From positions 21,751,606 to 21,815,605 of the forward strand of contig JASXTE010000001.1 of NCBI GenBank assembly GCA_030280995.1: 64,000 nt of DNA, given 5' to 3'. The stretch comes from Hemileia vastatrix. Its lineage: Eukaryota > Basidiomycota > Pucciniomycetes > Pucciniales > Zaghouaniaceae. This document shows, piece after piece, positions 4,252 to 48,665 of this stretch. Every line of letters starts with the position of its first letter. Position 1 is the stretch's first letter. Position numbers and translations under genes: made by a program. The notes under the pieces were generated by a model that was given only the letters and a program-made list of their open reading frames with translations, did no database searches and was not told the origin of the DNA.

Positions 4252-4610
4252 CCAATTCGCTTTGGAAACAGTCCCAGAACAATTCTAGACTGTTTCAGAA
4301 TGTTTTTGATAAGTTTTTTTCTTTTTTCTTTTTTTGCCTTAGAAACATGCTAGCAGCATGCCCAGCACCTTTCCAAGTGTTTTACTAACGTTTTTTTTAC
4401 TCCAAATCACTTTGGAAAAAGTCGCAGAAGAGCTCTAGACTGTTTCCTAGCACTTTTGGTAAGTTTTTTTTTGCCTTGAAAACATGCTGGCAGCACGCTC
4501 AGCACATTTCTGAGTGTTTTACTAAGTTTTTTTTTTGCATTTTTTTCTTTACTCCAAATCACTTCAGAAACAGTCCCAGATGAACTCTAGACTGTCACCA
4601 CGGGAAATCA
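4252..4610. repeat. Diverged tandem repeat, about 150-bp period
   Basis: Three starts of the same unit at about 4252, 4402 and 4554, each beginning CCAAATCRCTTYRGAAA followed by a conserved CTAGACTG block about 25 bp on. The first two are followed by AAACATGCT-GCAGCA-GC-CAGCAC and by T-rich runs; the third is truncated near 4600. Diverged tandem duplication without coding content. Confidence 0.7.
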
Positions 4611-5494
4611 GGGGGTGAAATGCTAGCAGTTCCCTCTTTTTGAAACTTTCAGGAAGAGGTTGGGAAATCATTGGGGAAATGTTTTGAAAGAATTAGGAAA
4701 CTGTTTTTAAATTATATGAAAAAATTTTGAAAAAAAAGTTGGCCCTAAATTGAGCCTCGATTTATCCCTTCTTGAGCAGAGCTTTGGATTTAAGTTGAGC
4801 ATCAGTTGGAACAAATTTGAGCAATGGTTGAGCCACAACACTTAACATACCATAATATTCAATTTTATATATAGATCCATTTAATGTTGGGAGGTCAGGT
4901 TTGATATTAGTAGAAATATCTTAAATGACACATAGTACACTAGGTCTGGAATATTATTTCAATTATCAATTTTATTTCCACAAATATATAAAAAAGAGTA
5001 CTATTTAAGTCCTTTTTAAAAATTTTATTAATAAAAATATAACTCTGTAAAAATATTTGCACATAGTTTTAAATTTTCTAGACAAAAGTTGATATTGAGC
5101 CCTTATCAATAGAAATTTCTCATTGTTCCTTGGAATAAAAAAGTATAAGACAATGTTCAAAAAATTTAATGTAGGAGAAAAAATATATATTTTTTTTATA
5201 AGGGGAAAAAATAGTAATGTATTTTTTAAAAAATTTACACTATTAAAGAAACTAATTTTAATATATTGGCACAAAACTTAGGCTCTAAAATAATGCACTT
5301 TTTTTAATTATTTATCTGTATTTAGTTATTATTAAAATGTGAGTCAACATTAATTATTAACATACATGAAAAATTCAATTTTGAATATTCATCTAATATT
5401 ATATATATTCTCTACTTTATTCTCTTTCAAAACTTTGCTCTCACCCTCTCTTTCTTTAAACTACCACCATCACCATAAAATTCATTTAATTAAA
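4611..5494. other. AT-rich non-coding stretch upstream of the SNF2 pseudogene
   Basis: Very A+T-rich, no supported ORF. A minus-strand frame at 5005-5274 is low-complexity K/F/N/I sequence of the kind chance produces in AT-rich DNA. The last ~130 bp should contain the promoter and 5' leader of the following SNF2-type gene. Confidence 0.5.
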
Positions 5495-7924: not shown

Positions 7925-9055
7925 AATTTGAAATTTGTTCAAGTATGTAGGAAATGTTTATTGGGGCTTGACAATTAAGAAGTCTTAATTGTTGAGGATT
8001 AAGAGAAGCGAGATATAATGAAGAATAGCAGTCACTTGGCAAACCCCTGGGGACTGGAAAAGAATTAAAGTGAGTCTTGATTGAGGATACCAAATTTAAT
8101 CTATCATATAATTCCAAGTTCTTAAGTATTTCTCCTGAATAAGAGGAAGATTCTCGGAATTTGAATGTGTTTCTGGTCGAGATTTTGTGCAAGTCTTGAG
8201 AATTCTTCAGATCTCCATGGCAATAAAATCCGCTTAAAAGAACCTTCATCATCAATTTTGGTGTCTGAGCAACATTTTACGTTTTTGAAAAGATTCTCAT
8301 AGGCTTCACCACTTGGAAGTTGTTTAAGAAGGTGAGTTTGGTTAAAAGAATTCTGAAAAAGATTGTCAAATTTATATAAGCTTGTGTAAAAAAAAGATAA
8401 AAATATTAGTTCTTACTTTCTTTTTTATTTTATATTTATACTTTCTTATTTTAACTATTTCACAGAAACTATCAGAATCTTTTCCGAGTTGTCATTTATC
8501 AGCATAACCTATAAAACAGCGGTGAAGAAAACCCATTTGATTTAGGTAGGAAATATGAGTAGAGTCCATTGAATAAGAAACCAAATAATTATTTTCCAAA
8601 GCTTTATCCCAGTGCTTAATAATAATTTTTGCCAAAACTTGATTCCACTCGTGAAACCAATCAAGATTCCAAGCAAACATTTTTCCAGGAAAGTTGCATT
8701 GAAGAAGAAAGTAGATAAAAGCATTGTGGAATATAGCAGGGATTTTTTCAGAAACACGGTAATTTCATTCAGGATATGGCAAATTAATATCAATGTTGAG
8801 AGAGCTTATATTTAACAATGAAAACCTATGTAGTTGCTCTTCGGTGGGGTTCAGCTTCCATTCATTAGACTGAGGTGAAATATTCAAAAGCACACAACAG
8901 AAATTGTAAATAGACCTGCAAAAATGAGAAGTTGATTGAGGGAGTATCTCATTGAATCTTTTATTTAGTACACGGGTATTAGTAGGTATTTTTCCCTGAG
9001 GAAAATAAGAACAACTAGAGCTCATCATATACGTTATGAAAAGCAAAATGAACAA
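7908..9055 (-). pseudogene. Broken gene of a probable rust-specific multi-copy family
   Basis: On the minus strand from 9055 the frame reads GKIPTNTRVLNKRFNEILPQ, SHFCRSIYNFCC, then after a TGA at 8765-8767 continues in the same frame with IPAIFHNAFIYFLLQCNFPGK, EWNQVLAKIIIKHWDKALEN and FLHRCFIGYADK. A probable intron ends at 8353 (TTTTTCAG on the minus strand), and the next exon begins NSFNQTHLL and carries LPWRSEEFSRLAQNLDQKHI. A frameshift between about 8160 and 8100 then leads into VPRGLPSDCYSSLYLASLNP and ends at 7908. The order of these blocks fits my recollection of an uncharacterised protein family repeated many times in rust genomes; function unknown. The N-terminus is probably truncated. 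It converges on the SNF2 pseudogene, sharing 17 bp at the 3' ends. Confidence 0.55.
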
Positions 9056-10045
9056 AAATATAAAATTTTGAAAGGATATGGCAACAAAAACACTACTATA
9101 ATAAATTTTTTATTTTGAAAATAGTTAATAATGAAGAGTTGAGTGGACGGACAGATGAGCTTTCTCATGAATATCTTTCTCTATAAAATATGGATATCTA
9201 TGTATGTTCATAATTAATTCAAAAGGAAATAACTCAGCTGTAATAGAAAATTATTGCATGATAAACGGGTAAAAATATAATGCAGAATCATTTTGATTTT
9301 CCAACTTATTTTGATAATATTTTAATGCAAATAATGACCTTATTTGAGCTTGTTGATTGTGCTGACAAACATATTTTAAAAATTTATATTAGCAACTTAT
9401 TGGTATGTATATATTTTATTTACCAAGATTACTCGGAAACCATACCAATTTTTCAGAGTTTGGAATAAGCAGCTTAATGTAAAAATTCTGTTTTATGGAT
9501 TCTGGAACCTTTACTTTGATGACCTCTTAGATTTGAAAATTTTAAAATAATATATTTTAAATTTTTTTATATCTTATAGTGATTATTAGTGAAAACCTTT
9601 CTGTTACTTGGCAGAATTTTATTAATTCAGCTGATTGCAGAAAAAAAAAACGGCAACACTTAAATAACTTTATTATTATAAATTAAATGGTATTATTTTG
9701 ATTCAAGTTATATCATAGTTTCTCCTATATTTAAAAATGCGATCAATTTGTATTCTCTTATAGTATTATGCTTTGTGCAAAATAAGCTGTTTGATAAACA
9801 TTTATGCAACATTGTAAAATGTAGCAAGTCTGAAACATTTTGCTGATGCACAGTATGGATACCTACTTAATGCATGGTTGATCTGCACGAAACAAACATT
9901 CAAAGAAATCCATGGTAACCAACTTGTTGATAAACTTCTTGAGACTTAAAAATTAGCTTATTTTAGTAAGTGCTTCACAATAAATAAATAGTTTGTTCAA
10001 TTGCTACCATCCAGTAACATATTTCTTATATCCAGAAGTCTTAAA
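9056..10045. other. AT-rich spacer before the Tnp2 gene
   Basis: About 1 kb of A+T-rich DNA with no supported gene; the small frame at 9280-9468 has no motif. It should hold the 5' end of the Tnp2-type element, but I could not find a convincing CACTA-like terminus here. CACTACTATAATAAA at 9090 has no matching inverted copy that I could see downstream. Confidence 0.4.
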
Positions 10046-13000
10046 ATGACACCATTTTTTTGCGTTTGTAAATGTGAAGAGCTTGGATGTTCATCAAGAA
10101 AGCATCAGACCTCATTGGGAAGCTTTGAAGTTGGTGTAGCTTTCAAAACATCTCAGTCATACTCCAAACATGAAGAGGAAAGAAATCGCAAAGCACAGAT
10201 GGTTGGTACATCCAGCGCTTCACCTAACTTAGGATCCAACATCCCAGATCTTGTAAGACATCAATATTTGGTAAATAAAGAGAAATTATGTTTCAATTAA
10301 TCTCTATTTTTTTTCTTTGCTTAGGGGCAGCCTGTTTTGGAACCAATTCAATCTCTACCACGGTCAAACAATTTGAATTTGGAAGAGCCTTATAGCCAAA
10401 AGATAATGTGGCAAGCAGCGAAACTTTCTCTTATCCATCATTTAAGCAAAGAAGGTTGTGCTGAATTTTTGCATGATGAAGTCAACAAACTCAAACTTCT
10501 TAGTGACATAGGCAAACTAGATGCTAGCAGAATCATCAGCCTGATTCCCCCTTCTATAGAGACAGTTTTTAGTCGATTGCAACTCAATCCATTATTTGTC
10601 ACCAAGACATGCTGTGCTAAGTGCTTTGCTCTTTATGAGTATATCCCCAAACACCAACCATTGATCTTATCTTGTACTCAACCTTTTTATTCATCCTCAA
10701 AGAGCTATTTGAAAGATTTAGGACAGAGAGAAGAAACTGTCAATTGTGATGAAAATTTGTATTTGGCTAAGTACAAACAAGAAGAAGCAATCTACCATCC
10801 TCGTAAAAAATTTCATCACAACAGTTTGGTTGAATGGCTTTCAGGAAAGTTTAAACTAATAAAATTCGAGACGCTGATTGAGAAAAAAAATGATTTTCTA
10901 GAAAACATGGAAAGGGATGTCATGAAAGATGTATATGATGGTTTTGTATGGAAAAATTTTCCAGATATTTCTACGACTTGAAATAGAAGTGTCAATGGGT
11001 ATACAAAAACACGAGGTAATTTAATGTTTAGTTTATATGTTGACTGGTTTAGGCTGGGTGGCAATCGTATTGGAGGTCATCAGAAATCTGTGGGTAATAT
11101 CTTGTTGGTGTGTATGAACTTGCCTACAGAAGATCAATACAAAACCGAAAATCTATTTTTGTATGCTATTATTCCCGGTCCAACTGAGCCAATGAGTGAA
11201 CAAATAAATCATCTTCTGAAGCCTCTTTTCGATGAACTAAAGACTCTATGGGATGGCATATTTGTTGAAAAAACACCTCACTATCCAAAGGGCTGAAAAA
11301 AAGGGCTGCATTATTCTCTTTAATAGGAGACATTCCAGAGATGCGAAAGATTGCTGGTTTTGCAAGTCACTCAGCCACTAAGTTCTTCTCTGTCTGTCAT
11401 ATTTCAAAAGATGAAATTGGTGAGCATCAAGTCAAAAAATTTTCCTTACATACTCATGAGGATCATATGCACTGGGCAGAGAAGTGGAAAAAGTGCCAGT
11501 CACATTGGGAGCGGGTATCTATTGTTAGGAGTCATGGGGTTCGATGGAGCGAGCTAAATAACCTTGTATATTGGCAACCTACGGAATATTGCTCAATTGA
11601 CTTGATGCATTCACACATGCTTGGAAATCTTAAAGATCACAGTCTAACTTTCTATCTAATACAAAATGCCGCAATCGACCTAGAAAAAAAGCTGACAAAG
11701 GAAAAAAATTGGCATGTAAGAAGAGAAGATGATGATGCACGTTCTGATATATTTCTAAATAAGCAATATAAAAAATGTAGAAGCAGCTTAATCAGCACTG
11801 ATGCTGATAATATTGAACCAGTGGGACGGCAAAAAAGACTATGATATACAAGTACAATGAGACAGTCACAAACATATCTTAGAATGGATAGTGGAGGAGC
11901 TGAATTGGAAGGATCAAACAGCCGGACAAAGTCATCAAGTTCTGAACATCACTTTCAAACCTTAGAGTTTGGCTCTGAACATGCTTCTGAAAGTGGAAGT
12001 CGAAATTCAACCTATAACTTAAGGCAAAAAAGTATCAGTATATCCGAAAGTGAAAGATCTAATTCATCTGTTGAGACTATTAGAAGTAAGGAAGATAAAA
12101 AGAAGGGCAAAGAGAAAGAAAGTGAAAGAACTAGGAATCCACGATTGTCAGCCACTGAGCTAGAGGCAGTGTGGAATGTGATAGAGCAAACAAAAAAACC
12201 TTCCTGGATTTCACGAGTGCCAAAACAAGTAGGATCTAAAAATTCAGGTTCCCTCAAAGCTGTGGAGTGGCATGTACTTTATACTGTTCACTTTCCTTTG
12301 TCACTTATCCCCCTTTGGGTAGAAAAATTAAATCAAGCCGAGACATCCGTGACATCAGACCACAAACCTAGAGAATATTATCTTCTCAAATCACTCACCA
12401 CTTTAAGTTCAATTACCGACTTTTTAACTTTAAAAAATGTGTCTGCCGATGAAGTTGATGAATTAAAACAACTGCTATTGGAGTATCGTAACTGCTTGGA
12501 AGAAGGTTGGAAAAATATCAGCTTTAAGCCAAATCTTCATTTCACTCAACATTTTCCAGAAATGATTAAACGTTTTGGTCCACCCGTAGGTATGGCTACT
12601 TGGGCTTCTGAAAGAGTTAATGGTATATTATCAGAAATTCCAAACAATCATCATCCAGGTATTTAGTTTGGTAATTGGGTGCTTAAAAATGCAAATGAGC
12701 TAATTTATTTTTATTGAACATAGAAGAAATACCACGGACCATTCTCAAGCACTGGCATCGGAAGTCTAGGGTATTGGAACTAGGTGAAGCTGAAGATGAT
12801 GCTCAGTATGGATCTAATATTAAAAAAATTGAGTACGATACAAAAAAAAGACATTTCCATTTAACTGAGGCATTATTTACAAAATGGGTAAGGGCACGCT
12901 TAAGAAAAGAGACATCTAAACGGGCTTTGTTACCATCAGAGAAGGCAGGAGACAGGGTAGTTGAAAATATAGCAAGCATATTGGTCCATGGAAAGAGTTA

Positions 13001-13411
13001 TACGACTCATGACCAGAATCCTGGGAATTCTACCATTGAACTCTACTTTGGAAAAGATAGTCAGTTTGGGCATATTGATCAGCTTTTTAGTTCAAAGGAC
13101 AATAATGAAAAAGTCTATCTAATCGTTAGTCCATTTAAAGAGCTTATACCAGAAGATACAAAAAAGGATCCCTATGAGGTGTTTCCACAAGTGCATTGCC
13201 ATTTAGTAAGAGTAGAAAAAGCGACACAAATTGTGATAAATCAGGATTCAATTATTGGACATGCCGCCACTTTACAGCACCAAAGGGGAATGTTTGGAAT
13301 AAAGTACGATGTTATCACTGCTGTTGGACTTCAGACACTAGTAAGTAAAAAATTAAACAACATGGACATTTTATTTTCGTTAATATGGTTGAAATTATTT
13401 AGGATTGGTAA
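10046..13411 (+). pseudogene. Tnp2-type (CACTA/EnSpm) transposase, inactivated
   Basis: Exons 10046-10270, 10325-12658, 12724-13340 and 13403-13411, with GT-AG introns of 54, 65 and 62 bp. Family hallmarks in order: N-terminal CVCKCEELGC; NLMFSLYVDWFRLGGNRIGG; YAIIPGPTEPMSEQINHLL; EMRKIAGFASHSATKF with a CH-containing follow-on; SHGVRWSELNNLVYW; YCSIDLMHSHMLGNLKDH; KPSWISRVPKQVGS with SLIPLWVEKL; LHFTQHFPEMIKRFGPP; WASERVNGILSEIP; and the closing GHIDQLFSS and FPQVHCHLVRVE. This matches the Tnp2 transposase family (Transposase_21) abundant in basidiomycetes. It cuts and pastes CACTA DNA transposons. Breaks: TGA 10979-10981, a one-base frameshift near 11295 (frame changes from PHYPKG to KKRAALFSLIGDIP), and TGA 11842-11844; total exon length modulo 3 also fits one missing base. 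Start 10046 was chosen because the Cys-rich family N-terminus begins there. An intact gene follows about 420 bp downstream on the same strand. Confidence 0.85.
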
Positions 13412-13834
13412 GGATTTGAAAGATTTGGAAAGTTTGTAATAGATCTTTGGAACAGCTAGGTGCAAGATTAATAAATAAAACTTTTTGAGATGTTGCCTAA
13501 ATGTTTAAGAAAACAATAACAAGGCCATTCATTACGGTTTAGAAACCCTGCTATTAATGAGTGACATTTTATTGTAAATGTAATTCCAACTAAAAGGAAT
13601 TCAATGTACTATACAAAGTCTACCTATACTTGAAAAATATTATAAATAGTTCAGAAACAGGGTTGAAAAATCTAAGGACCATATTTTTCAAGCCAATAAA
13701 ACTGAGTTTTCCACTAATTTTTTCGCTTGAATATTTTATTCATTAAACTCAAAATTAAAATGTATAACTAATTTCTCTTTAATATTATCTTGTCTATATT
13801 CTGAAAGTTAATAATTTTTTTTATAAAGCACAGA
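13412..13834. other. Non-coding spacer between Tnp2 and the next gene
   Basis: A+T-rich, about 420 bp, with no supported ORF. Expected to hold the 3' end of the Tnp2 transcript and the promoter of the following gene. No obvious terminal repeat separates the two genes, so both could lie in one element. Confidence 0.45.
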
Positions 13835-15510
13835 ATGTCTAATACTGGTGATGCCATGCAGGTTGATCCTCCATTAGAAAGTAATGTTGGAGTGCAAAAT
13901 AATCCTCCCCCTCAAAATCCTAGAATGCCTCTATTGGGTCCTGCTCCCCCTGAAAGACCTAGTGAAAATCCAGGTAAACCCTAACCTCCTCCTCAGTCTT
14001 CATCAGATCCCCAAATTTGATCAACTGATTGCTCTTCTAATATCACAAATACAGATTGCAATCCGCACCTGGTAATTTTCAGCAGGAAGCAGAAAGTGTA
14101 GGTAATGATTGGGCTAGTATGTTGTTGAATCAGTCTCTTGGAAGTGGTGGGGGATCCACTTCTACTAACCCAGCCGCAAGTACCAGTGGACCTGGTGAGT
14201 AAACTTTTTCAACATGCTTTTATGTTTTAAAATAGGTTTACCAATTTTTATTTTCAAAAATTTGCAGTTAATCCCTCTCTTATAATTCGAGCTACTGATC
14301 AGTGCAGAATACTTGATGCTGAGTCACTTCAAAATGACCAAAACTTGCGAATGGTTAGAAGCATAGTTACGAGGTGTGATGTACCAAGGAGCTCAGATTC
14401 TATTAACCAAAATATCTATCACTTTTTGAAGTTCTGTCTTGGTGGACCCATTAATTTATCTGAGTTTCCTATAGGCACAACAAATGAAGAACTTACAGAT
14501 TGGAAAAATTGGCATGAGTACAAGCTATTGACGATTGAAACAGCATTAAAACAGGTTCAAAACGCACCGCAGGCAACTTCAGCTGCTGATCGTCAATTTA
14601 TTTTAACAAATACTGCTATATTCTTACGTTCCAAAATTCATCTACCAACTTTTATTTCAACACCTGAGCCCCGAGGACTAAAGGGAGGAGCTGCTGTACC
14701 GATCTCTGTAAAACAGCATTTGGAACAAGAGCTTCAAGAGAAAGGATTTTGTCGACTCGCTTTTGATTGGAACTGTCAAAATTTTTCTGAGTCACTATGG
14801 AATAAAGTAATGGGGAGTGTAGTATCAGACCATTGTACTAAGTGGCTCTCAACATTGAAAAATATTGATTCAGCAAAACTCAAGTTTACACCAATCATCG
14901 TCAAGCAATGGGTGGTCAACAAGGGAAAGGAGATTCGAAAGGTGGCTGGTCAAAACTGTGAGGTGATTGAGGCAAGTAGAAAGGAAAAGAGTTCAAGAGC
15001 ACAGATAAAGCGTTATCAAACAAAGGTATTTATTCAAAGAATAATAACTAAAGAAAGTCTATTACTAATTTGATTTGATTTTAGATTTCAAAAAACCACT
15101 ACAACATTGCAAGAAAAAAGTACTTTGATCAGCCAGGCTTTGTAGCACTTTTTCATGATACAAGTCTCATGTCTGATTTAGAAGAAGCCCCACCCGATCC
15201 AGAAGAGAATTGTCCTAAACAAGTAGTTCCTGGAAGGATAAATCCAAAACTCGATGAAATTTTAGATAAAATGGACAACTTGACTAAAAAGACGGCCCAT
15301 TCAAATTTTGAAAAGGCTTCAATGAAGAAACTTTATGATCGCTCAACTAAAAAGACAGCTTCAACAGATGGTATCTTGAATGTGCCCAAATTTCTGCCAA
15401 AAATCTGCTATTCACCTGGATATTTAGCAAATTTGTCAATTAATGAGAGGGAGTTACTTGACGTTCGAGAAGATATAGATTTTGCCAAAGTTAATGAAGC
15501 ACTAGATTGA
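13835..15510 (+). CDS. Uncharacterised 474-residue protein, possible Tnp2-element second gene
   Basis: A four-exon model gives an unbroken reading frame: 13835-13973, 14093-14194, 14268-15025 and 15085-15510 (1,425 nt, 475 codons including TGA). Introns are GT-AG (119, 73 and 59 bp). The least certain junction is the acceptor before 14093, chosen because it restores frame; others nearby run into stops. The protein starts MSNTGDAMQVDPPLES, has a proline/serine-rich N-terminus of ~85 residues, then a hydrophilic core with LRMVRSIVTRCDVPRSSD, CRLAFDWNCQNFSESLWNKV and KVAGQNCEVIEASRKEKSSR, a basic stretch, NHYNIARKKYF, and an acidic tail near FAKVNEALD. I recognise no domain or catalytic site. 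Its position just 3' of a Tnp2 transposase on the same strand, and its resemblance in layout to accessory proteins of CACTA elements in basidiomycetes, suggest (inference) an element-encoded DNA-binding partner. It is striking that this frame is intact while the transposase is broken. Confidence 0.6.
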
Positions 15511-16037
15511 GCAGCAGCACCTTAAATTTTTTACCCCACTGGTAACCATGTATATAGGGTGATAGTAATCATTTTTTAAATATAACATTATTATTCTTTC
15601 TTATAAAAAATTCCAATTGATGTATAAGATAAACGAGAGCAAAAGAATTAACGATTTTAAAATTATTGAGGATAGAAAAACAGATATATATTTTTGTAAA
15701 ACTTTAAGACATGATAAATGTTTTAATTAAATAAATGTGAATTTTTTTTATGCACAATAAATGAACTTAAAATAAATTAAATTGAATCTCTTCTCAGAAA
15801 CTTACAACAAGATCAAATTAAAGCCTAAAACAAGAATAGAATTAGACTCTGAATTTCAAATTAAAATACCTGTTTTTCAATAATTATAATTGCTTTTTTA
15901 TTGGCTAAACGCCACCAATGATTAGTATAAAAATGCACATGTGAAAAAAAATGAAAGTGAACACCATCCCTCACCAAAAAAGAAAGATCATTAAAGGCAC
16001 TCAAAAATCCATTACCATAGTTAATAAACAAAATATA
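15511..16037. other. AT-rich non-coding stretch
   Basis: No supported gene; the minus-strand frame at 15861-16043 is low-complexity. The 3' end of the Tnp2-type element might lie here but no CACTA-like terminus was found. Confidence 0.4.
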
Positions 16038-16924
16038 CACCACGCAATATGGGGGGCGGACTTGCTAGCAAGTCCGCAACCTTGAACCCTAATTCATATC
16101 TTTTTGAGCACACATTGAGGAAGTGATGAAACCATCATGAAGAAGTATTGAATTTACTTTGAACACACCTTGAAGCTCATGTGAACACAAATGGGGCTAC
16201 AAGGGCTGGAAAGGCTGGAGAGAGGGGTGAGGAAGGGTGTATGGGGTAGCGAAAAGGTTGGGAAAGAGTTGGAAGGGAAGATTAAGGGTTCCGAGGCATT
16301 TTAAATGAAGAAAAGGGTCTGGGAGAGGTTGAGAGGGGTGAAATGGGGATCAAAAGAGGATGGCATACAATGGGGCTGGGAGGATAGCGAAAGGCATGGG
16401 AAGGGAAGACAAGCATGTGTTGATAGAATTGAAAGGGATGGAGATTGGTGCAAACAGAGTGTGAAAATAGGAGGATGAACTCTGTTCTTCGGGCGAAGAA
16501 CAGAGTTCACTTCCATAAAATATTAGCTGAAACATAGTTTTCAATTCTGTAAAAACAGTTGTAAGTAATAGAAAAAGTCACTGATTTTTTTTATATGTAA
16601 TCTGAAATTTTTTAATAAAATTATTGTATTTAAGAATTGCAATATTGTCAATCAATTTTTATTGATCAAATTAATTTAATAAAGTATTATTTTAATAAGC
16701 TGTTTCAAAAAATACTTTGCATTGAGTAGACTCATGGAATGATTTTTTCTGGCTTCCATTCAGTTATCCTCACACTTTCACTATGTTTTCAATATAGATC
16801 CATTGTTATTTGTGTGATACTTCAAGTGAAAGTTCAGTATTACTTCAGTCTGAGTTCCATCTGATTTCCATCTGACTTCAAGTTGCGGACTTGCTAGCAA
16901 GTCCTCCCCCTATATTGCGTGGTG
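16038..16924. mobile_element. 887-bp MITE with CACCA...TGGTG ends and palindromic terminal repeats
   Basis: Terminal inverted repeats of about 48 bp: the left end begins CACCACGCAATATGGGGGG at 16038, and the right end is its near-perfect reverse complement ending CCCCCTATATTGCGTGGTG at 16924. Flanks are ATATA on both sides (16033-16037 and 16925-16929), so the target duplication is ATATA or a shorter sub-run such as ATA. Inside each terminal repeat sits an 18-bp perfect palindrome, GGACTTGCTAGCAAGTCC (22 bp at the left end). The interior is purine-rich (16200-16400) with no transposase, so it is non-autonomous. The CACYACGCA end is shared with the MITE at 43490-44874, pointing to the CACTA superfamily. 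A diverged copy lies at 62781. Confidence 0.8.
16476..16509. repeat. Perfect hairpin, 16-bp arms, inside the MITE
   Basis: Arm TGAACTCTGTTCTTCG at 16476-16491, a 2-base GG centre, then the exact reverse complement at 16494-16509. It is in the MITE interior, away from the terminal repeats, and no T-run follows that would suggest a terminator. Confidence 0.9.
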
Positions 16925-17152
16925 ATATACAAAAAATTAAAGCATTCAAACGATGGGAATTTGTTTACACAAGGATCTTAAGAAATTTTTTTTTTAAACT
17001 TCACTTTTTGCAACAATAATTGAAAATTATTAATCATTAAAAACCAAAAAATCATCAATTTATATTTGGTTTTCATTCCTTAAAAAATAAAAGAGGCTTT
17101 AATAACATGTAATTGATAAACATACTTCAGTAGAATCTAAGTATTGTGCTAT

Positions 17153-20100
17153 GTGTCCAGTACAGGTTTGGCCAAACTTAAGCTGGACACTTTGGCCAAG
17201 ACCAGTGACTAAAAATTGCAAGGAAAACCAAAAAACAATAGGCTATAAACGGAAGTTAATTGATGGCATCAAATTGTTTTTTGATAAAAGTGTCAAGCAC
17301 AAGTTCGGCCGAACTTATGCTGGACACTTTTCCAATTTGAAGTTTGTAAGGTGTATGTTTTTTTAAGAGAAGTGAGGTGTTCCTCATAAAAGTGTCCAGC
17401 ACAAGTTTGGCCAAACTTGTGATGGACACTTTTACCAAAAAAAAAAATAAATGCCATCAAATATGTTCATTTTATAGCCTAATTTTTTTTAATTTCCTTG
17501 AAGTAATAAGTTACTGTACATGACCAAAGTGTCCAGCACAAGTTCGGCCGAACTTATGCTGGACACTTTTATGAGGAACACCTCACTTCTCTTAAAAAAA
17601 CATGCACCTTACCAAATTCAAATTGGAAAGGTGTCCAGCACAAGTTCGGCTGAACTTATGCTGGACACTTTGGCCAAGACCAGTGACTAAAAATTGCAAG
17701 GAAAACCAAAAATCAATAGGCTATAAAAGGAAGTTAATTGATGGCATCAATATTTTTTTTGGGAAAAGTGTCCAGCACAAGTTCGGCCAAACTTATGCTG
17801 GACACTTTTCCAATTTGAAGTTGGTGAGGTGTTCCTCATAAAAGTGTCCAGCACAAGTTTGGCCGAACTTGTGATGGACACTTTTACCAAAAAAAAAAAA
17901 ATGATGCTATCAAATATGTTCATGTTATAGCCTAATTTTTTTTAATTTCCTTGAAGTAATAAGTTACTGTCCATGACCAAAGTGTCCAGCACAAGTTCAG
18001 CCAAACTTATGCTGGACACTCTTATAATTTGAAGTTGGTAAGGTACATGTTTTTTTAAGAGAAGTGAGGTTTTCCTTATAAAAGTGTCCAGCACAAGTTC
18101 GGCCGACTTGTGCTGGAAGCTTTTACCAAAGACATTAGATAGCATCAATTATCTTCCTTATATGGGCTATTTTTATTGGTTTTCCTTGCAATTTTTTGTC
18201 ACTGTTCTTGGCCAAAGTGTCCAGCACAAGTTTGGCCAAACTTATGCTGGAAACTTTTATAATTTGAAGTTGGTGAGGTGTATGTTTTTTTAAGAGAAGT
18301 GAGGTGTTCCTCATAAAAGTGTCCAGCACAAGTTCGGCCAAACTTGTCCTGGACAATTTTACCAAAAAAAAAAAATAGATGCCATCAAATATGTTCATGT
18401 TATAGCCTAATTTTTTTTAAATTCCTTGAAGTAATAAGTTACTGTCCATGACCAAAGTGTCTAGCACAAGTTCTGCCGAACTTATGCTGGACACTTTTAT
18501 AAGGAAAACCTCACTTCTCTTAGAAAAACATGCACCTTACCAACTTCAAATTATAAAAGTGTCCAGCATAAGTTCGGCCAAACTTGTGCTCGACACTTTG
18601 GTCATGGACAGTAACTTATTACTTTGAAGGAAATTAAAAAAAATTAGGCTATAACATGAACATATTTGATAGCATCATTTTTTTTTTTGGTAAAAGTGTC
18701 CATCACAAGTTTGGCCGAACTTGTGCTGGACACTTTTATGAGGAACACCTAACTTCTCTTAAAAAAACATGCACCTTACCAAATTCAAATTGGAAAAGTG
18801 TCCAGCACAAGTTCAGCAGAACTTATGCTGGACACTTTGGCCAAGACCAGTGACTAAAAATTGAAAGCAAAACCAAAAATCAATAGGCTATAAAAGGAAG
18901 TTAATTGATGGCATCAATATTTTTTTTGGTAAAAGTGTCCAGCACAAGTTCGGCCAAACTTATGCTGGACACTTTTCCAATTTGAAGTTGGTGAGGTGTA
19001 TGTTTTTTTAAGAGAAGTGAGGTGTTCCTCATAAAGGTGTCCAGCACAAGTTTGGCCGAACTTGTGCTGGACACTTTTACCAAAAATAATATTGATGCCA
19101 TCAATTAAATTTCTTTTATAGCCTATTGATTTTTGGTTTTCCTTGCAATTTTTAGTCACTGGTCTTGGCCAAAGTGTCCAGCATAAGTTCTGCTGAACTT
19201 GTGCTGGACACTTTTCCAATTCGAATTTGGTAAGGTGCATGTTTTTTAAAAGAAGTTAAGTGTTCCTCATAAAAGTGTCCAGCACAAGTTTGACCAAACT
19301 TGTGATGGACACTTTTACCAAAAAAAAAAATGATGCTACCAAATATGTTCATGTTATAGCCTAATTTTTTTTAATTTCCTTCAAAGTAATAAGTTACTGT
19401 CCATGACCAAAGTGTCCAGCACAAGTTCGGCCGAACTTATGTTGGACACTTTTATAATTTGAAGTTGGTAAGGTGCATGTTTTTTTAAAAGAAGTGAGGT
19501 TTTCCTTATAAAAGTGTCCAACACAAGTTCGGCCGAACTTGTGCTGGACACTTTTACCAAAGACATTAGATAGCATCAATTATCTTCATTATATGGGCTA
19601 TTTTTATTGGTTTTCCTTGCAATTTTTAGTCACTGTTCTTGGTCAAAGTGTCCAGCACAAGTTCGGCAGAACTTGTGCTGGACACTTTTACCAAAAAAAA
19701 AAAATAGATGCCATCAAATATGTTCATGTTATAGCCTAATTTTTTTTAATTTCCTTTAAGTAATAAGTTACTGTCCATGACCAAATTGTCCAGCACAAGT
19801 TCGGCCGAACTTGTGCTGGACACTTTTATGAGGAACACCTCACTTCTCTTAAAAAACATACACCTCACCAACTTCAAATTATAAAAGTGTCCAGCATAAG
19901 TTCGGCCGAACTTGTGCTGGACACTTTGACCAAGAACAGTGACTAAAAATTCCAAGGAAAACCAATAAAAATAGCTCATATAATGAAGATAATTGATGCT
20001 ATCTAATGTCTTTGGTAAAAGTGTCCAGCACAAGTTCGGCCGAACTTGTGCTGGACACTTTTACAAGGAAAACCTCACTTCTCTTAAAAAAACATGCACC

Positions 20101-21088
20101 TTACCAACTTCAAACTATAAAAGTGTCCAGCATAAGTTCGGCCAAACTTGTGCTGGACACTTTGGTCATGGACAGTAACTTATTACTTCAAGGAAATTAA
20201 AAAAAATTAGGCTATAACATGAACATATTTGATAGCATCATTTTTTTTTTGGTAAAAGTGTCCATCACAAGTTCGGCCAAACTTGTGCTGGACACTTTTA
20301 TGAGTAACACCTCACCAACTTCAAATTGGAAAAGTTTCCAGCATAAGTTTGGCCGAACTTGTGCTGGACACTTTTACCAAAAAAAATATTGATGCCATCA
20401 ATTAACTTCCTTTTATAGCCTATTGATTTTTGGTTTTCCTTGCAATTTTTAGTCACTGGTCTTGGCCAAAGTGTCCAGCCTAAGTTCGGCCAAACTTGTG
20501 CTGGACACTTTTCCAATTTGAATTTGGTAAGGTGCATGTTTTTTTAAGAGAAGTGAGGTGTTCCTCATAAAAGTGTCCAGCACAAGTTCGGCCAAACTTG
20601 TGCTGGACTCTTTTACCAAAAAACAATTTAATGCCATCAATTAACTTCCTTTTATAGCCTATTGATTTTTGGTTTTCCTTGCAATTTTTAGTCACTGGTC
20701 TTTGCCAAAGTGTCCAGCATATGTTTGGCCAAACTTGTGCTGGACACTTTTCCAATTTGAATTTGGTAAGGTGCATGTTTTTTTAAGGGAAGTGAGGTGT
20801 TCCTCATAAAAGTGTCCAGCATAAGTTTGGCCGAACTTGTGCTGGACACTTTTACCAAAAAACAATTTAATGCCATCAATTAACTTCCTTTTATAGCCTA
20901 TTGATTTTTGGTTTTCCTTGCAATTTTTAGTCACTGGTCTTGGCCAAAGTGTCCAGCACAAGTTTGGCCAAACCTATGCCGGACCCTTTTATAATTTGAA
21001 GTTGGTAAGGTGTATGTTTTTTTAAGAGAAGTGAGGTTTTCCTCATAAAAGTGTCAAGCACAAGTTCGGCCAAACTTGTGCTGGACAC
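17153..21088. repeat. Array of 34 regularly spaced 38-bp palindromes
   Basis: Each unit is a self-complementary 38-mer with half-site GTGTCCAGCACAAGTTCGG followed by its reverse complement. Unit starts: 17153, 17290, 17392, 17529, 17631, 17768, 17844, 17982, 18084, 18217, 18319, 18457, 18559, 18696, 18798, 18935, 19037, 19174, 19275, 19412, 19514, 19648, 19786, 19887, 20021, 20123, 20258, 20334, 20471, 20573, 20710, 20812, 20949 and 21051. Spacing alternates 137 (133-138) and 102 (101-102), with two 76-bp steps. Spacers fall into a long module L (about 95-100 bp, TTTTACCAAA...GGCCAAA, three sequence variants) and a short module S (64 bp, TTTTCCAATTTGAAG or TTTTATAATTTGAAG...CATAAAA), each present in both orientations. 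Units vary mostly at two central CpG sites. Apparent ORFs inside (repeating VQHKFGRTCAGHF and similar) are translations of the repeat. Not CRISPR: the spacers are not unique. No flanking recombinase or transposase is visible. Confidence 0.95.
20015..20064. repeat. Perfect 50-bp palindrome (best-preserved array unit)
   Basis: Unit 25 of the array is fully symmetrical over 50 bp: GTAAAA, then the 38-bp core with both central CpGs (TTCGGCCGAA), then TTTTAC. It is the natural reference sequence for the family; most other units differ from it by one to four substitutions. Confidence 0.9.
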
Positions 21089-22391
21089 TTTACTCAAAAC
21101 AGTTTGATGGATTCAATTGTCTACATATTCCTTACCATTGTCTTTTGGTAAAGAGGGAAACCTTTAGCTATTGGTAGTTGTTTTGAGTATATTATGAGTA
21201 GTTGATATTTCCATTTTAAGGTAAAAGAGTACAATATTTTTAGCAATTACCAGTAATTTATTTCCCTCAATATTTCTAAGATATTGGTTATAATTTTTAT
21301 AACACCTATTTCTAATATTCCTCTTTGATTTGATTATTTATTTTAGTCCTGATTTAAAGGTTTTTACTATTTTATCAAACAAGCTTTACATCAATGTAAA
21401 AAATACCCTGATTAATCCTGCTATATTTTTTTTGACTGTTCCTATTCAATAATAACTCAATTTAGAAACATATATCCATTATCTATTTTCTTTTTCAAAT
21501 TAGTTATCTCAGTGGAAAGTGTTCATCAATTTCTATTGAATGATGTTTACAGTACGTAACCTTGTACAAATCTGTAAAATACTTTAAAAAAATTGTGACT
21601 TTGGTAGTTGGTTATTGGATTTTATATGGCAATAATTTCAAATAATTTTATACTTTATTCATATGCTAAGATTCTTAAGTGTTTCTATTTTGGATTTATT
21701 ATATCAATTTAACTTTAACTAAGTTTAGACTAGGTTTGTGCCACGGGGTGTCAGCGCAGCCCAAACAAGCTCCTATCATAGAATAAATTAATTTTTTTTA
21801 ATAATTTTATATAATACTATTTAGTGTTATCTTTTTTTATCCCCTTTTTTAAATTATCTTTTTCCTTTGTTTTTGTCCCCTATTTTTTATAACACATAAA
21901 GATGCCAAAACTTCCAATAATAGATCCCTTTGTCATATTGCATGATGTCAATATTTAAAAATTAATTTAAATATTTAAATTAGTTAAACTTATATTCTCA
22001 ACTATTTACCCTTTGCAATTATCAAATTGTAAATTGGACATTTTCTTTGTTTGTCAACCTTTTAAGCCCCCAATGTTTATGTCTAGTTACTTCCCTTTTA
22101 CTTTTAACCCCATTATTATCATCAGAATATTTTACAATATGCTTGCTAGCTTGATGCCATTGTAAAAGAACCCCTATCAAAAACCTGCTTCTGGTAATAT
22201 ATAAACCCTCTTGTTTAGTACCACATTTGTCAATTCATTAATTTCTCTCAATTTTACTACTATTATATTTTGGTTATCACATTTATCTGTGTTAGTACAG
22301 CTTGAAAATACAAATAGCAATATATATTTTTTATCTCTTTATTACCTTGATATAAGAATTTTTCATTTTTTTCAAGTAATAAGTCATTAAA
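21089..22391. other. AT-rich stretch after the array, no supported gene
   Basis: The first ~50 bp after the last palindrome look like a diverged long spacer (TTTACTCAAAACAGTTTGATGG). An 11-bp inverted pair TACTCAAAACA (21091) and TGTTTTGAGTA (21179) follows. The rest is A+T-rich with no supported ORF or element end. Confidence 0.45.
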
Positions 22392-24801
22392 ATGCCTTGT
22401 GATAAACAGACACCTCCTTTATGTAAGATCTATTGCTTTATCTCTTATATCTTCTTAGACTAACTTTTCTTTTCCATTAATATATTTGATATATTAGCAC
22501 CAAGTAGCTATTTGACGAAATCTCATCAGCATCCTCAATTTGAATCCTTCAAACTCAAGAAACAACCACCTCTAGGCATGTCTCCAAACCCCCCTTCTCT
22601 TGCCAATGAAAGGACTGAAATTACCCGATTTCAATATGGCAAGATACTTGAGTTTGCTAAAGGCAAAGCTGAAGAACTACTTTCAACTCTTAGCGAGAAG
22701 CCTTTGCCATCTTATATTTCGAATGCCTACAACAATGTGCTTGAATACATTGATGACCTAGAAAAATGTAAGTAATTATTTTATATTAAATTCTTTAAAC
22801 TCAGAACAATAAATTATGGACACTTTTTCTTTAAAACTTATTCAAATTCAGCTTATGAAAAAGGTATTGTTCCTCCTGATGATGTCATTATCATCAAAGA
22901 TGATAATGATAATGAAATACCTGATGCTGAAGGCTATGCATCAACATCTCGAGGGGGAGATAAGACTATTCTTCAACGTTCAAAAAGAATGAGACTTTCT
23001 AGGGGCTCTAGTTTTGTCAGTGCTACTAAAACTCCTCCTGCCAAGGATTCCTCTTACTCAGCATCTCAAAAATCTTAACAAACTAGCCAAGATGTGTCAA
23101 AAGGGTATGTCATTTCTTTCATGAGTAATATAGCAATCAATTTTATATTAGTGTTTAAAGATATCTCCAAATTGTTTACTTTCTTATTTATTATTTCTTG
23201 TCTTTTTCTTATCTTTTAATCCAGCTCTAAAAACGACAATCACTCCAAAGCGTCAACTAATAGCAAATCTTGCTCTAATGAAGAAGAAGAAGATGAAGTT
23301 TCAAAATATGAAGCTTCTCTAATTCAAAAAGATGATTAAGCTACTTCTGCTGATGAGGTTGAGAAAACACCGAATGAAGAAATTGATCCACCTAGCCAGC
23401 CACAAAAAAATACTTCAAGTTCAAAGAAACATCTTATAGTTGCCGTATCTTCAAAATCTAAAATTGAAATTCCCCAAATCCTACAGTCTCTATCATCATC
23501 AATAAAAATTTCTAATAACTCCCTTCCTTATACTCCAACAATGATTGGAAACTCAAAATTACAGAAGTAAATAGCTGAAATTCATCGATTTTTTGAAGGT
23601 AGAATCAATGGTCAAAAGGTACTTAGGGCATGTCCAGAAATTGATCAGTTATTTGAAATCCATTTGTCTGCTTCTCTTGAAAAGCCACACAAAATTTCGC
23701 ACAAATTCAATTTTCTATGGATGAAATCTGCTCATGACAAAATGCTTACAAAAATTAATGAACTCTGTATGTATCACTTACTTGAAGTTGGATAATTTAT
23801 TTTATGATAACTAATTGTTTTGTTATTTTTTTAGCTTTGGATTTTCTTAATGTTGACACTTTGCAGATCTGGGTGGTCAATAATTTGAACTTTGAAAATT
23901 TGGAAAATTTTTGTAACTCTGAAGAACCAAACTCAAATAATCTTTCTCCGTTTAAGAAGACTGATCACCCTGAATCATCGATGATACGCATGCTATCAAG
24001 ACTAGTTAGCCCAAGTGCTCACCAGCATTCTTTTTGGGCATCCCTCGTCACATCATCTCTTTATCTTGCTTCTCAAGAGTTTACCCTTCCTGCTGAAGAA
24101 TCCGACTTCAATCCAGATTGTCCTATTTAACGTGCCCTACATATTCTAGCCCACCTTACACATCTGAAAAGCAAATTTCCCAATACATTCAACAGCTCAA
24201 CATCACATTTAATTGCTGCAAATTTTTCAATCACTCCCCTATGCCAATTTAGAAACATAATAATTGACGTCATAATTTCAATAATTATTTTAAAATCTAG
24301 AGAGGCTTCTGCAAATATAACTCAAGCTGAAAGCAAGAAACAACAACGTTCGAGGAATAAAAAAAAACAACAGATATGCAGCAATTTGATGAGTCTCATA
24401 ATGATTCTATTCAGAAGATGAATCAAGAATATGCACACCATAAATATCAATCATTTACTTTTTACTTGGTTGATGGTGTTCGTGGATTATTTCTTTCCTC
24501 ACAGGACCACCGGCTTGTGTCAGCTTCAGACTGCTTAGAATTCATAACACAACTCGGCCTCCTTAGAAAATACTGTGATAATAATAATCTGGGGGGTGAA
24601 AAAATCTGGAAAAACCTTAATTTTTATATCTTTAATATTATCAAACCCTTAATATATAATTCTGGGCCTATTCCACTTAATTTTAATACTCCCACCATGA
24701 TCCATATTGCTAAAGCAATGGCAGCTGATTTTCTTGATTATTGGAATCTTATTAAGCCGAATTCTTCATTTTTCTCTATTGTTGACGTAATTAATACATA
24801 A
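22392..24801 (+). pseudogene. Multi-exon gene of unknown family with four in-frame TAA stops
   Basis: Exons 22392-22422, 22498-22767, 22852-23104, 23225-23766 and 23835 onward join in frame through GT-AG introns of 68-120 bp. The protein starts MPCDKQTPPLSPSSYLTKS, has a charged helix ERTEITRFQYGKILEFAKGK, an acidic/serine-rich middle, then EIHRFFEGRINGQKVLRACP, KFNFLWMKSAHDKMLTKINE, LDFLNVDTLQIWVVNNLNFE and SRLVSPSAHQHSFWASLVTS. In-frame TAA codons occur at 23076-23078, 23337-23339, 23568-23570 and 24128-24130, and a frameshift in an A9 run near 24360 precedes the last block, SLMSLIMILF giving way to MQQFDESHNDSIQKMNQEYA, with HIAKAMAADFLDYWNLIKPN near the end. I recognise no domain. Splice sites and phases are well kept although the frame is broken, so decay is probably recent relative to gene birth. 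It may be another lineage-specific multi-copy family. Confidence 0.6.
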
Positions 24802-26047
24802 TCCTACTTCATGTAAATATATACTTTATCTTATTGCTACATTTTTTTGTGTAACTCAAATTATTTATTTATGTGAGATTTATTACTGAATCTGAATAAA
24901 GATGCTTAAACTATCAATAAATATTATTGTATAAATTTCTTACACCTTTTTGCTATTCAGTAAATATTATTGCAATAATCATAACTCAAAATCATGATGG
25001 ATCAAAAATTTGAAGAAAAATTAAGAATACATTATAAGTCATTTTTCTCATAACACTATATATTTCTTTAAGATGGCAATACATCTTAGCATTTGTTGCA
25101 AATTTTAAGATAATTATTACAAAAAATTGAAAAAGTTTTCTATCAATTCTTTTCAGCATGTTAAAAAGTTAAAAATATTAAGTGTAATGAATTTTTGCTC
25201 ACAATTCATCAAAGCTTTTTCTTAAGTAGACTTTTCTTAATCTAATATCTATAATTTCTAGGTGCATAATTATCTTAATTATACTAAGTATTCTCTATGA
25301 AAAACTCCTGGAAATAATATTCGATTCATTTAATAATAGTAACATATATATGTACCATGATAAAATAATATCTAGACATTTAAATAATGAGAAGCCATCA
25401 TATTGGTATGAAATCATATTAAAGTGTCTTTGAAAAACTAGTTAAATTTAAAAAATATCTTTTTATAAGTGTCAATTATTTTGAAAAACAATATTTACTC
25501 TACATTTCGATGATCTATAATTTAGCTTGCTGTATTTTGATTCATATTTTATATTGATTATTTTTTACACTTACAGATTCATGTATAGATATCAAATTTC
25601 GTTCAATAATTTGGTAAAAAAGATATTTAATTCTTTCTATGAAAGCAAAAAAATAAAAGAAAGCAACTAGGGTACTCCTTATTAAGAATTTAAAAATATT
25701 ATTTCTATAAATATTAAAACAAACCCTTTTTAGATTGCCATCCTTCTTGGTCATCCTTAAATGTCAATAATAAGTTATTGAAATGTTATTTTTCTTCTAA
25801 AATTTCATATGAATCAAATTCTACTTACATCTACCTTAATAGATCAACTTCAATAAAAATGTATCTACAATATTTTTCTTGGTTTTTAAGATTCATTCAA
25901 CTCCAAGAAAAAAGAAATATTCTTCCACAACTCTTATAATTAATTCAATGGATAAATATTCAAACACTTTAAAATAAATTTCAATTTGATTTTGTTATAT
26001 TTATCTTAAAATATATTGAGGTCCACTCTCTGACAAAAGTAAAAGCC
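24802..26047. other. AT-rich stretch, no supported gene
   Basis: About 1.25 kb of very A+T-rich DNA. The only frame above 60 codons, 25542-25754 on the minus strand, is low-complexity and unsupported. No element ends were recognised. Confidence 0.5.
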
Positions 26048-26096
26048 CTTTACCAACACGGCTGGGGATTCTCTTATCCATTTTGGATAAGAGACG
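26048..26096. repeat. Left half of a ~100-bp palindrome flanking the Tc1-like foldback
   Basis: CTTTACCAACACGGCTGGGG followed by ATTCTCTTATCCATTTTGG and ATAAGAGACG; its near-exact reverse complement lies at 35968-36016. It also contains a small hairpin, CTCTTATCCA-TTT-TGGATAAGAG. Joining the two halves across one TA gives a near-perfect palindrome centred on ACGTACGT. Confidence 0.8.
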
Positions 26097-27563: not shown

Positions 27564-27574
27564 CTCCCTCACTC
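27564..27574 (-). other. Polypurine tract of the chromovirus
   Basis: On the minus strand GAGTGAGGGAG lies immediately before the 3' LTR, preceded by a T-rich run. It fits the usual primer site for plus-strand DNA synthesis. Confidence 0.7.
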
Positions 27575-27597
27575 TAAAAAAACAATAAAAAAAAATG

Positions 27598-30903: not shown

Positions 30904-30966
30904 GACAAAAAACTCACAAATAGCTCTGACAAAACCACCATTATATTTGAAGAAAACAGAGGTTTT

Positions 30967-34428: not shown

Positions 34429-34446
34429 CGTTTGGAAAGGTCCCCA
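34429..34446 (-). other. Probable tRNA primer-binding site
   Basis: Reading the minus strand from the 5' LTR end (CA), two bases are followed by TGGGGACCTTTCCAAACG. It starts with TGG, complementary to a tRNA 3' CCA end. The tRNA species was not identified. Confidence 0.6.
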
Positions 34447-34448
34447 GT

Positions 34449-48184: not shown

Positions 48185-48665
48185 TATTTTATCTAAAAAG
48201 TTGTAGGGGAAAAACTATTTCAAAATTAATTAATAAAAGATTTGGAAAAAAAATAAAACCCCCACCAAAAAAAATCAATAAACAAGAGTAAAAAAATGAT
48301 AATATAAGCTCCATATATAAAAAAATTATTAAGAAGTGAAAAATAAAAATAATCCATAAATACCTGAGGTTGTTTGGAGCCACCAAATGAGCAGCCAACA
48401 GCAATGGATGCTGGAGGGGGAGGATAGAAAAACCTAGCAAGAGCAAGAGGAGGAAAAAAAAAATGGGGAAAGAGGGGGGCACATTAGTTGACAGTGTTTC
48501 ACTGGTAGATTTGAGAAGTTATCAGATAATTATCTAAAAGAAGATGTTAGGGTGAGATTTGGTGATAATGTCATTGATAATGGTGTTTCCCAAAAAAGGG
48601 CAAGTTTTTTTGTTAAAAGTTAAAGTTTTTTTCATTTTCCACAAAGTATTTTTGGTCTAGCTGTA

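What the first reader, a model, noticed from the sequence alone, without database searches (positions are those of the whole stretch)
17153..21088. Array of 34 perfect-type 38-bp palindromes with alternating fixed spacing
The sequence shows 34 self-complementary 38-mers (half-site GTGTCCAGCACAAGTTCGG) over 3.94 kb. Starts alternate 137 and 102 bp apart with almost no drift. Neither a simple satellite (two spacer classes, each in both orientations) nor CRISPR (spacers are repeated, no cas genes) explains it. Every unit could extrude a long hairpin or cruciform. Possible roles, all inference: a MITE-derived satellite, a dimeric protein-binding array, a source of hairpin RNAs feeding small-RNA silencing, or a recombination/replication-fragile site.
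Basis: seen in the sequence. Interest (0 to 1): 0.88.

Follow-up and report, generated by a model that had tools for sequence, protein, structure and literature searches.

The report
Palindrome array inside a jumping gene
The striking row of 34 near-identical palindromes is an internal part of a very common fungal DNA transposon whose fuller copies also carry a gene for a DNA-demethylation-type enzyme, and the palindromes look like docking sites for a protein that helps the transposon rather than a free-standing satellite.

Summary
The array is real: 34 copies of a 38-bp (44 bp with AAA/TTT) palindrome at 17153-21088, mostly 137 and 102 bp apart. It lies inside a truncated copy (4596-26051) of a high-copy EnSpm/CACTA-like transposon: termini CACCACGGG...CCCGTGGTG, 3-bp target duplications (2 of 3 copies), tnp2-type transposase, SNF2 gene and, in a fuller copy, a Tet-like dioxygenase ORF. 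The genome holds about 29,700 half-sites per strand. In 20 stretches sampled on one contig the palindromes fall into two classes: 102/137 arrays, and ~608-bp-period arrays; where ends were read or listed, both lie near the same terminal repeats. Both classes have the identical 44-bp palindrome consensus, while spacers have diverged almost beyond recognition. Palindrome arms mutate independently, so nothing suggests hairpin selection. In the window array 35 of 37 CpGs lie in palindromes, nearly all TCG on one strand, the context reported as hypermutated in rust repeats. Best reading: a binding array for a transposon-encoded dimeric protein, probably for anti-silencing or activation, like VANC targets or TnpA sites but central, palindromic and longer. 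Identity is well supported; function is inferred and no binding protein was identified.

The parts
4596..26051 (+). Truncated copy of a high-copy EnSpm/CACTA-like transposon that contains the array
   Evidence: 39 other listed places match from window 4589-4596 onwards, 32 of them from 4595 or 4596; C121 copy collinear at 95.7-96.9% on both sides of the array; 39 other listed copies match up to 26050-26051, but the four other copies read there run on with a shared sequence, so 26051 is a truncation of the window's copy; the element goes on at least 3.4 kb
4596..4634 (+). Left terminal inverted repeat CACCACGGGAAATCAGGGGGTGAAATGCTAGCAGTTCCC
   Evidence: matching right ends CCCGTGGTG on other copies, with 3-bp target duplications
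5354..7573 (+). SNF2-family helicase gene in pieces (5354-6589, 6657-7046, 7358-7573)
   Evidence: Pfam SNF2-rel_dom 2.1e-25 and 7.1e-20, Helicase_C 1.6e-8; the stretch is collinear in the C121 copy
10325..13439 (+). CACTA/Plavaka-type transposase region (ORFs 10325-10981, 10982-11296, 11269-11844, 11845-12666, 12699-13439)
   Evidence: 10982-11296: Transposase_21 (tnp2) 1.3e-7, over cut-off; 11269-11844: Plavaka 3e-5, 23.8 bits, under its cut-off of 26.3; the other three ORFs have no transposase match
14231..15510 (+). Two orphan ORFs (14231-15073, 15085-15510) just left of the array; candidate for the binding protein by position only
   Evidence: ORFs; no Pfam match for either (C121 and C26 counterparts); for 14231-15073 also no homologue, no solved structure and an unusable AlphaFold2 model, mean pLDDT 37
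16038..16924 (.). Nested element with its own CACCACG...CGTGGTG ends and ATA target duplication; not part of the array-bearing element
   Evidence: absent from the C121 copy; ends and duplication
17153..21088 (.). Array of 34 palindromes of 38 bp (44 bp with AAA/TTT), with A spacers (96-100 bp) and B spacers (63-64 bp, two shortened to 38 bp) in both orientations
20021..20058 (.). The one copy identical to the consensus GTGTCCAGCACAAGTTCGGCCGAACTTGTGCTGGACAC
21089..26051 (+). Right flank belonging to the element; holds a decayed, interrupted gene of unknown function (about 22464-24801)
   Evidence: first 600 bp found at 39 other listed places, 38 of them over the full length, at 97-98%; abuts a 102/137 palindrome array in the 14 of 14 other loci read; ORFs; no Pfam family over its cut-off for the ORFs scanned

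Best explanation
The array is an internal, non-coding, cis-acting part of a high-copy EnSpm/CACTA-like DNA transposon group whose fuller copies carry a tnp2/Plavaka-like transposase, an SNF2 helicase and a Tet-like dioxygenase. Shown: location, termini, target duplications, gene content, the same palindrome in other elements near the same termini, and concentration of CpG in the palindromes. Inferred: each palindrome is a double-stranded binding site for a dimer of a transposon-encoded protein; many sites together recruit enough of it (with the Tet-like enzyme and SNF2 protein the likely effectors) to keep the element unmethylated and active or competent to move, and relatives without these genes keep the sites so as to be served in trans. 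The array grows and shrinks as a 239-bp dimer and its blocks invert by recombination at palindromes.
For: Inside a transposon: the right flank abuts a palindrome array in 14 of 14 other loci read; collinear copy; sharp left end in 39 other listed places; terminal repeats plus matching 3-bp duplications, AGT for the 608-type element C2:95901-114723 and ATT for the window-type copy C2:820975-851697. Gene content; Tet-like PF20515 1e-14 in the C121 copy. Sharing: the consensus of 263 window-type palindromes and of 118 608-type palindromes is identical at 44 of 44 positions, with spacers nearly unalignable. Deletion derivative L018 keeps five palindromes. Eight of 14 listed terminal-repeat places on C2 lie within 3 kb of a listed palindrome, random mean 0.57. 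CpG: 35 of 37 in the window array lie in palindromes; CpG observed/expected 0.04 in spacers, 0.40 in palindromes. Duplex binding rather than hairpin: arms mutate independently. Precedents, passages read: VANC motif arrays, CACTA subterminal repeats bound by TNPA, TnpA-linked demethylation as cited.
Against: No protein-DNA binding is shown and no DNA-binding domain was recognised in the orphan ORFs (folds unusable). Within one spacer type palindromes depart from their consensus about as much as spacers do (0.042 against 0.024-0.057 per non-CpG site). Palindromes were collected by similarity to the consensus (at most 12 or 10 mismatches of 44), which favours uniformity. Palindrome CpGs are partly decayed: 79 copies keep both, 124 one, 60 none of 263. 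Homogenisation by recombination could preserve palindromes without selection. Four of the 14 terminal-repeat places have no listed palindrome within 17 kb, and one of the 14 is L018, from which the pattern was taken. The window's own copy is truncated before the Tet-like gene.
Confidence: 0.5

Rival explanations
1. Neutral minisatellite: a tandem repeat that arose inside the transposon, spreads with it and is kept uniform by unequal exchange and inversion at palindromes, with no function for the palindrome itself.
For: Array length and module order vary between copies; within-type divergence of palindromes and spacers is similar; transposons carrying satellite-like arrays are known (Tetris, oyster Helentron elements; search listing only).
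Against: Identical 44-bp palindrome consensus in two element classes with diverged spacers; nearly all CpG of the window array is in palindromes; CpG sites differ 5.3-fold more than other sites in palindromes against 12.1-fold elsewhere in the element, though saturation may explain part; in the two 608-type stretches profiled most ~608-bp units hold one intact palindrome while the palindrome 137 bp away has decayed.
Confidence: 0.25
2. Transposition-only array: sites for a TnpA-like accessory protein that brings the element's ends together, as in En/Spm, without a role in methylation.
For: CACTA subterminal repeats are cis-determinants of transposition bound by TNPA-like proteins, and in soybean Tgmt* they can form 2 + 12 palindromes (passages); the palindrome occurs near the same terminal repeats in different elements.
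Against: The array is central, not subterminal: in the C2 copy about 11.7 kb from the left end and 15.6 kb from the right end. A fuller copy carries a Tet-like ORF, pointing to methylation as a live problem.
Confidence: 0.2
3. Hairpin function: palindromes extrude cruciforms or are transcribed into hairpin RNAs that feed small-RNA silencing.
For: Single strands fold strongly (-22.7 kcal/mol for the perfect copy, z -9.6).
Against: No excess of compensatory change: at the variable CpG position both arms changed in 32 copies (27 still pair) against 28.6 expected by independence; at position 14 in 4 against 26.8, which reflects which spacer the arm adjoins. Elsewhere only 8 pairing double changes were seen. 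Fold energy follows from the palindrome itself and is no independent evidence.
Confidence: 0.04
4. Tandem insertion of MITEs whose terminal repeat is the half-palindrome.
For: Two half-palindromes face each other around every spacer.
Against: The terminal repeats of the host element are a different sequence; the array occupies the same place in the 14 other copies read; in the 20 stretches sampled on C2 the palindrome occurs in arrays, or pieces of arrays, of two classes.
Confidence: 0.01

Closest known systems
TET+ EnSpm (CACTA) transposons of rust fungi (Kojima 2025, PMC12730594: abstract, sections 3.1, 3.2.2 and 4.2 and find passages read)
   Same: CAC...GTG termini, 3-bp target duplication, transposase with Plavaka similarity classed as EnSpm, TET/JBP-type gene
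   Different: In the parts read no internal palindrome array is described; 'SNF2' has 0 occurrences and 'palindrom' 1 (unrelated) in its main text
VANDAL21/VANC anti-silencing targets in Arabidopsis (Hosaka 2017, PMC5735166; PMC10398659; passages read)
   Same: Tandem arrays of a short motif in non-coding parts of a DNA transposon, rapid array turnover, an unrelated element sharing a motif, related classes with different motifs
   Different: VANC motifs are short (9 bp for VANC21) and lie in the same orientation; here 38-44-bp palindromes; a Tet-like ORF is present here; binding and demethylation are untested here
Subterminal repeats of CACTA elements bound by TNPA (Tgmt* of soybean, PMC2613891, passages read)
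   Same: CACTA element, repeated motifs able to form palindromes, cis sites for an element-encoded protein
   Different: 4 + 24 repeats within 159 and 732 bp of the ends there; here a central array of 5 to 34 regularly spaced palindromes in the six window-type arrays read from end to end
Satellite-like arrays carried by transposons (Tetris, Helentron elements; search listing only)
   Same: Tandem array inside a mobile element
   Different: Listed there in connection with satellite DNA; here the conserved unit is a palindrome shared between element classes

Membership tests
EnSpm/CACTA transposon | Terminal inverted repeats beginning CAC and ending GTG | tested here: met
   CACCACGGG...CCCGTGGTG in the window-type C2 copy; the 608-type C2 element ends CCCGTGATG and L018's right end CCCATTGTA, both departing from GTG
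EnSpm/CACTA transposon | 3-bp target site duplication | tested here: met
   2 of 3 copies with both ends read: AGT/AGT and ATT/ATT; the third (L018) has a decayed right end and no match. Ends were paired by position; a 3-bp match has a 1 in 64 chance on even base use
EnSpm/CACTA transposon | tnp2-type DDE transposase | tested here: met
   PF02992 1.3e-7 over cut-off; Plavaka PF18759 3e-5 under cut-off; catalytic residues not checked
EnSpm/CACTA transposon | Repeated motifs in the subterminal regions | tested here: not met
   These repeats are central, more than 11 kb from either end in the C2 copy; subterminal placement is the plant pattern, whether fungal elements need it is not known to me; other subterminal repeats were not sought
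TET+ transposon | Encodes a TET/JBP-type dioxygenase within its ends | tested here: met
   PF20515 1e-14 in the C121 copy, in sequence shared by 36 other copies over essentially the full 3.4-kb query; absent from the truncated window copy; the right end of the C121 copy itself was not reached
VANC-type anti-silencing target | Motif array in non-coding DNA of a transposon | tested here: met
VANC-type anti-silencing target | Bound by an element-encoded protein that removes methylation | not testable with these tools
   no binding or methylation data held
Classical satellite DNA | Long tandem arrays not bounded by transposon ends | tested here: not met
   Dispersed short arrays in or near elements with terminal repeats in the loci sampled
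CRISPR | Unique spacers and cas genes | tested here: not met
   Spacers fall into A1-A3 and B1-B2 types; cas genes were not sought separately, none among the domains found in the ORFs scanned

The most novel reading that the evidence does not exclude
Fungal transposons have evolved a sequence-addressed demethylation system of their own: a palindrome array serves as the address, read by a dimeric transposon protein that brings a transposon-encoded Tet-like dioxygenase and SNF2 remodeller, and relatives lacking these genes have kept the same address to be served in trans. The fossil class-2 palindromes would record an earlier address that was replaced.
Probability: 0.25. Interest if true: 0.85.

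Novelty: new variant of a known kind. Interest (0 to 1): 0.62.

Why it matters
Tet-like genes look heavily expanded in this genome (10,849 first-look candidates; 150 scored, all over cut-off; 0 of 14 control genomes), yet how transposon-borne copies could be aimed at their own element is unknown; Kojima 2025 (section 4.2 read) says their function is not experimentally validated. A repeated palindromic address that holds nearly all the CpG of its array, shared by different members of one terminal-repeat group, would be a concrete answer that methylation-aware long reads could test. Even if the mechanism fails, the array accounts for a repeat with about 29,700 half-sites per strand and should not be annotated as satellite or CRISPR.

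Tried and rejected
Rejected: chance or assembly artefact; CRISPR; tandem MITE insertion with the 38-mer as terminal repeat; hairpin selection; the first idea that 26051 was the element's right end (seemed to show it; one search showed that other copies run on); the first idea that 608-type spacers are wholly unrelated (searches show faint similarity, 69% over 186 bp, and the same 137/100/76 spacing in the fossil region). Led nowhere: viral contigs 0 matches; genome contigs 1 match in a Tannerella bin, not a palindrome, taken as chance; homologues of ORF 14231-15073 and of the Tet-like ORF none; solved structures none useful for these two; folds with mean pLDDT 44 and 37, not searched further; the half-site as text in papers 0; a live sister family with intact class-2 arrays was looked for and not seen among the 100 places listed. 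The species was not identified; 'rust' rests on the Tet-like expansion and element type resembling the literature and is inference.
Full report
Thirty-four copies of a 38-bp palindrome lie at 17153-21088, 33 found within 10 mismatches and one with a 1-bp deletion. AAA and TTT extend the symmetry to 44 bp. Only 1 of 33 measurable copies is exactly self-complementary; 30 have one to three non-complementary arm positions and 2 have four. Steps are mostly 102 and 137 bp, with two of 76 bp. Spacers fall into three A types and two B types, 11-31% apart within a class, in both orientations; the basic unit is a 239-bp dimer with inverted blocks, and as far as classifying whole spacers can show, switches of orientation lie at palindromes.

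The array is not free-standing. The 600 bp to its right were listed at 39 other places at 97-98%, 38 of them over the full length. In the 14 other loci read, the flank abuts a 102/137 palindrome array. A copy on contig C121 is collinear with window 4595-16039 (apart from small gaps) and with 20808-26051, at 95.7-96.9%. Thirty-nine other listed matches begin at window 4589-4596, 32 of them at 4595 or 4596. The right limit at 26051 turned out to be a truncation of the window's copy: the four other copies read there run on with a common sequence, shared over at least 3.4 kb with 36 other copies over essentially the full query and with three more in part.

The element is EnSpm/CACTA-like. Its left end reads CACCACGGGAAATCAGGGGGTG. 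A short deletion derivative, L018, showed the right terminal repeat, and a pattern from it (4,589 places at up to 3 mismatches, control 0) led to full elements on C2. The window-type copy at C2:820975-851697 has target duplication ATT on both sides (in the element's orientation); a 608-type element at C2:95901-114723 has AGT on both sides; L018, with a decayed right end, has no match: 2 of 3. The window copy holds SNF2 (2.1e-25) and tnp2 (1.3e-7) pieces, with a sub-threshold Plavaka match. Beyond the point where the window's copy breaks off, the C121 copy has a Tet-like dioxygenase ORF (PF20515, 1e-14); that the C121 copy has the SNF2 and transposase stretches rests on collinearity. Kojima 2025 (PMC12730594; abstract, sections 3.1, 3.2.2, 4.2 and passages read) describes TET+ EnSpm families in rusts with CAC..GTG ends and 3-bp duplications.

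The palindrome is shared more widely than the element's body. The half-site 16-mer has 29,695 forward and 29,714 reverse places at up to 2 mismatches, against 58 and 46 for the reversed control. I fetched 20 stretches covering the 100 listed places, all on C2 up to 4.7 Mb: 3 hold 102/137 arrays and 17 hold ~608-bp-period arrays or pieces of them. Of 14 right-terminal-repeat places listed on C2 up to 4.2 Mb, 8 lie within 3 kb and 10 within 17 kb of a listed palindrome; random means are 0.57 and 2.02, highest of 5,000 draws 5 and 7. Four lie further off, and one of the 14 is L018, the source of the pattern. Both lists are truncated, so this is a sample and not a census. Of 35 ORFs of 90 aa or more in the 20 stretches, 23 lie in the 17 608-type stretches, and none of these 23 resembles the coding parts of the window element or of the held C121 remainder, array left out; ORFs of the window-type stretches L017 and L020 do. 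Only part of each 608-type element was read, so that they lack genes is not proven.

Within the two classes the palindrome is the same: 118 palindromes of the 17 608-type stretches have the same 44-bp consensus as 263 window-type ones, 0 differences. The copies were picked by similarity (at most 10 and 12 mismatches of 44), which favours uniformity. Spacers of the two classes align only faintly. The flank of the 608-type arrays also holds decayed palindromes of a second class (consensus AAATTGTCCACCTGAAGTTTGGCC...) at the same 137/100/76 spacing, and in the two stretches profiled (L023, L012) most ~608-bp units hold one intact class-1 palindrome and a recognisable decayed one 137 bp away. Class-2 half-sites number 3,758 and 3,632 against 598 and 598 in the control, isolated among the 100 listed places.

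Mutation pattern. Arms of 263 window-type palindromes vary independently: at the variable CpG site both arms changed in 32 copies, 27 of which still pair, against 28.6 double changes expected by chance; at position 14 both changed in 4 against 26.8, because the change goes with the side next to a B spacer. This gives no sign of selection for a hairpin. CpG is depleted in the whole window (observed/expected 0.27) with excess TG+CA (1.18); in the array 35 of 37 CpGs lie in palindromes, with spacers at 0.04 and palindromes at 0.40. Of these 35, 33 are the two core CpGs and 34 read TCG on one strand, the trinucleotide reported as hypermutated in Pucciniomycotina repeats (Kojima section 4.2). The C of TCG is changed in 80 and 94 of 263 (top and bottom strand), the opposite C of CpG in 39 and 34. 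The sites are partly decayed: 79 of 263 palindromes keep both CpGs, 124 one, 60 none. Between copies, CpG sites differ 12.1-fold more than other sites in the rest of the element but 5.3-fold in palindromes. This hints at protection or selection, but saturation and recombination could explain part of it. Against constraint, within one spacer type the palindrome departs from its consensus about as much as the spacers (0.042 against 0.024-0.057).

Interpretation. An internal array shared between different members of one terminal-repeat group, with a fixed palindromic sequence amid changing spacers, is what a binding array for a transposon-encoded dimer should look like. Two precedents fit in part. 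VANC proteins bind short-motif tandem arrays in non-coding parts of VANDAL elements, and an unrelated element can share the motif (PMC5735166, passages). CACTA subterminal repeats are cis-determinants bound by TNPA and in soybean Tgmt* can form palindromes (PMC2613891, passages); TnpA activation of Spm correlates with demethylation (as cited in PMC10398659, passages). Here the array is central, about 11.7 and 15.6 kb from the ends in the C2 copy, which favours the VANC-like over the subterminal reading. Which protein binds is unknown: ORFs 14231-15510 and 22464-24801 are candidates by position only, and the searches and folds run on their pieces were empty or unusable.

Context. Tet-like domains look heavily expanded in this genome: 10,849 first-look candidates, 150 scored and all over cut-off, 0 of 14 control genomes. 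The A. psidii paper (PMC12774611, passages) reports CpG depletion, preferential methylation of transposons and CACTA as the second largest class there. None of the titles and abstract openings listed describes this array, and the half-site as text gave 0 papers; those searches cover open-licence PubMed Central papers only, and one search listed 20 of 1,059.

Noticed in passing
16038-16924: Nested element with CACCACGCAATATGGGGG ends, inner palindrome GGACTTGCTAGCAAGTCC and ATA target duplication, inserted in the transposon just left of the array
   Followed up: partly
26423-35589: Chromodomain Gypsy retrotransposon (ORFs 27598-30966 and 30967-33786, minus strand) between two LTR-like repeats (about 26423-27563 and 34448-35589), right of the truncated transposon copy
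   Followed up: no
5354-7573: An SNF2-family gene lies inside the transposon between left end and transposase; the word does not occur in the main text of the TET+ transposon paper
   Followed up: partly
own genome G000: Apparent large expansion of Tet-like 2OG-Fe(II) dioxygenase domains: 10,849 first-look candidates, 150 scored and all over cut-off
   Followed up: partly
L023:8451-9412, L012:7385-8345: Fossil class-2 palindromes (AAATTGTCCACCTGAAGTTTGGCC...) with the same 137/100/76 spacing as the window array
   Followed up: partly
4596-4634: The terminal repeat itself contains an inner palindrome; other copies read GAACTGCTAGCAGTTC
   Followed up: no
47747-48214: ORF with weak Tc3-type transposase helix-turn-helix match (8.9e-5, under cut-off)
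   Followed up: no
L029:328-380: GC-rich repeat of GGACTCCGT-like words near a 608-type array
   Followed up: no
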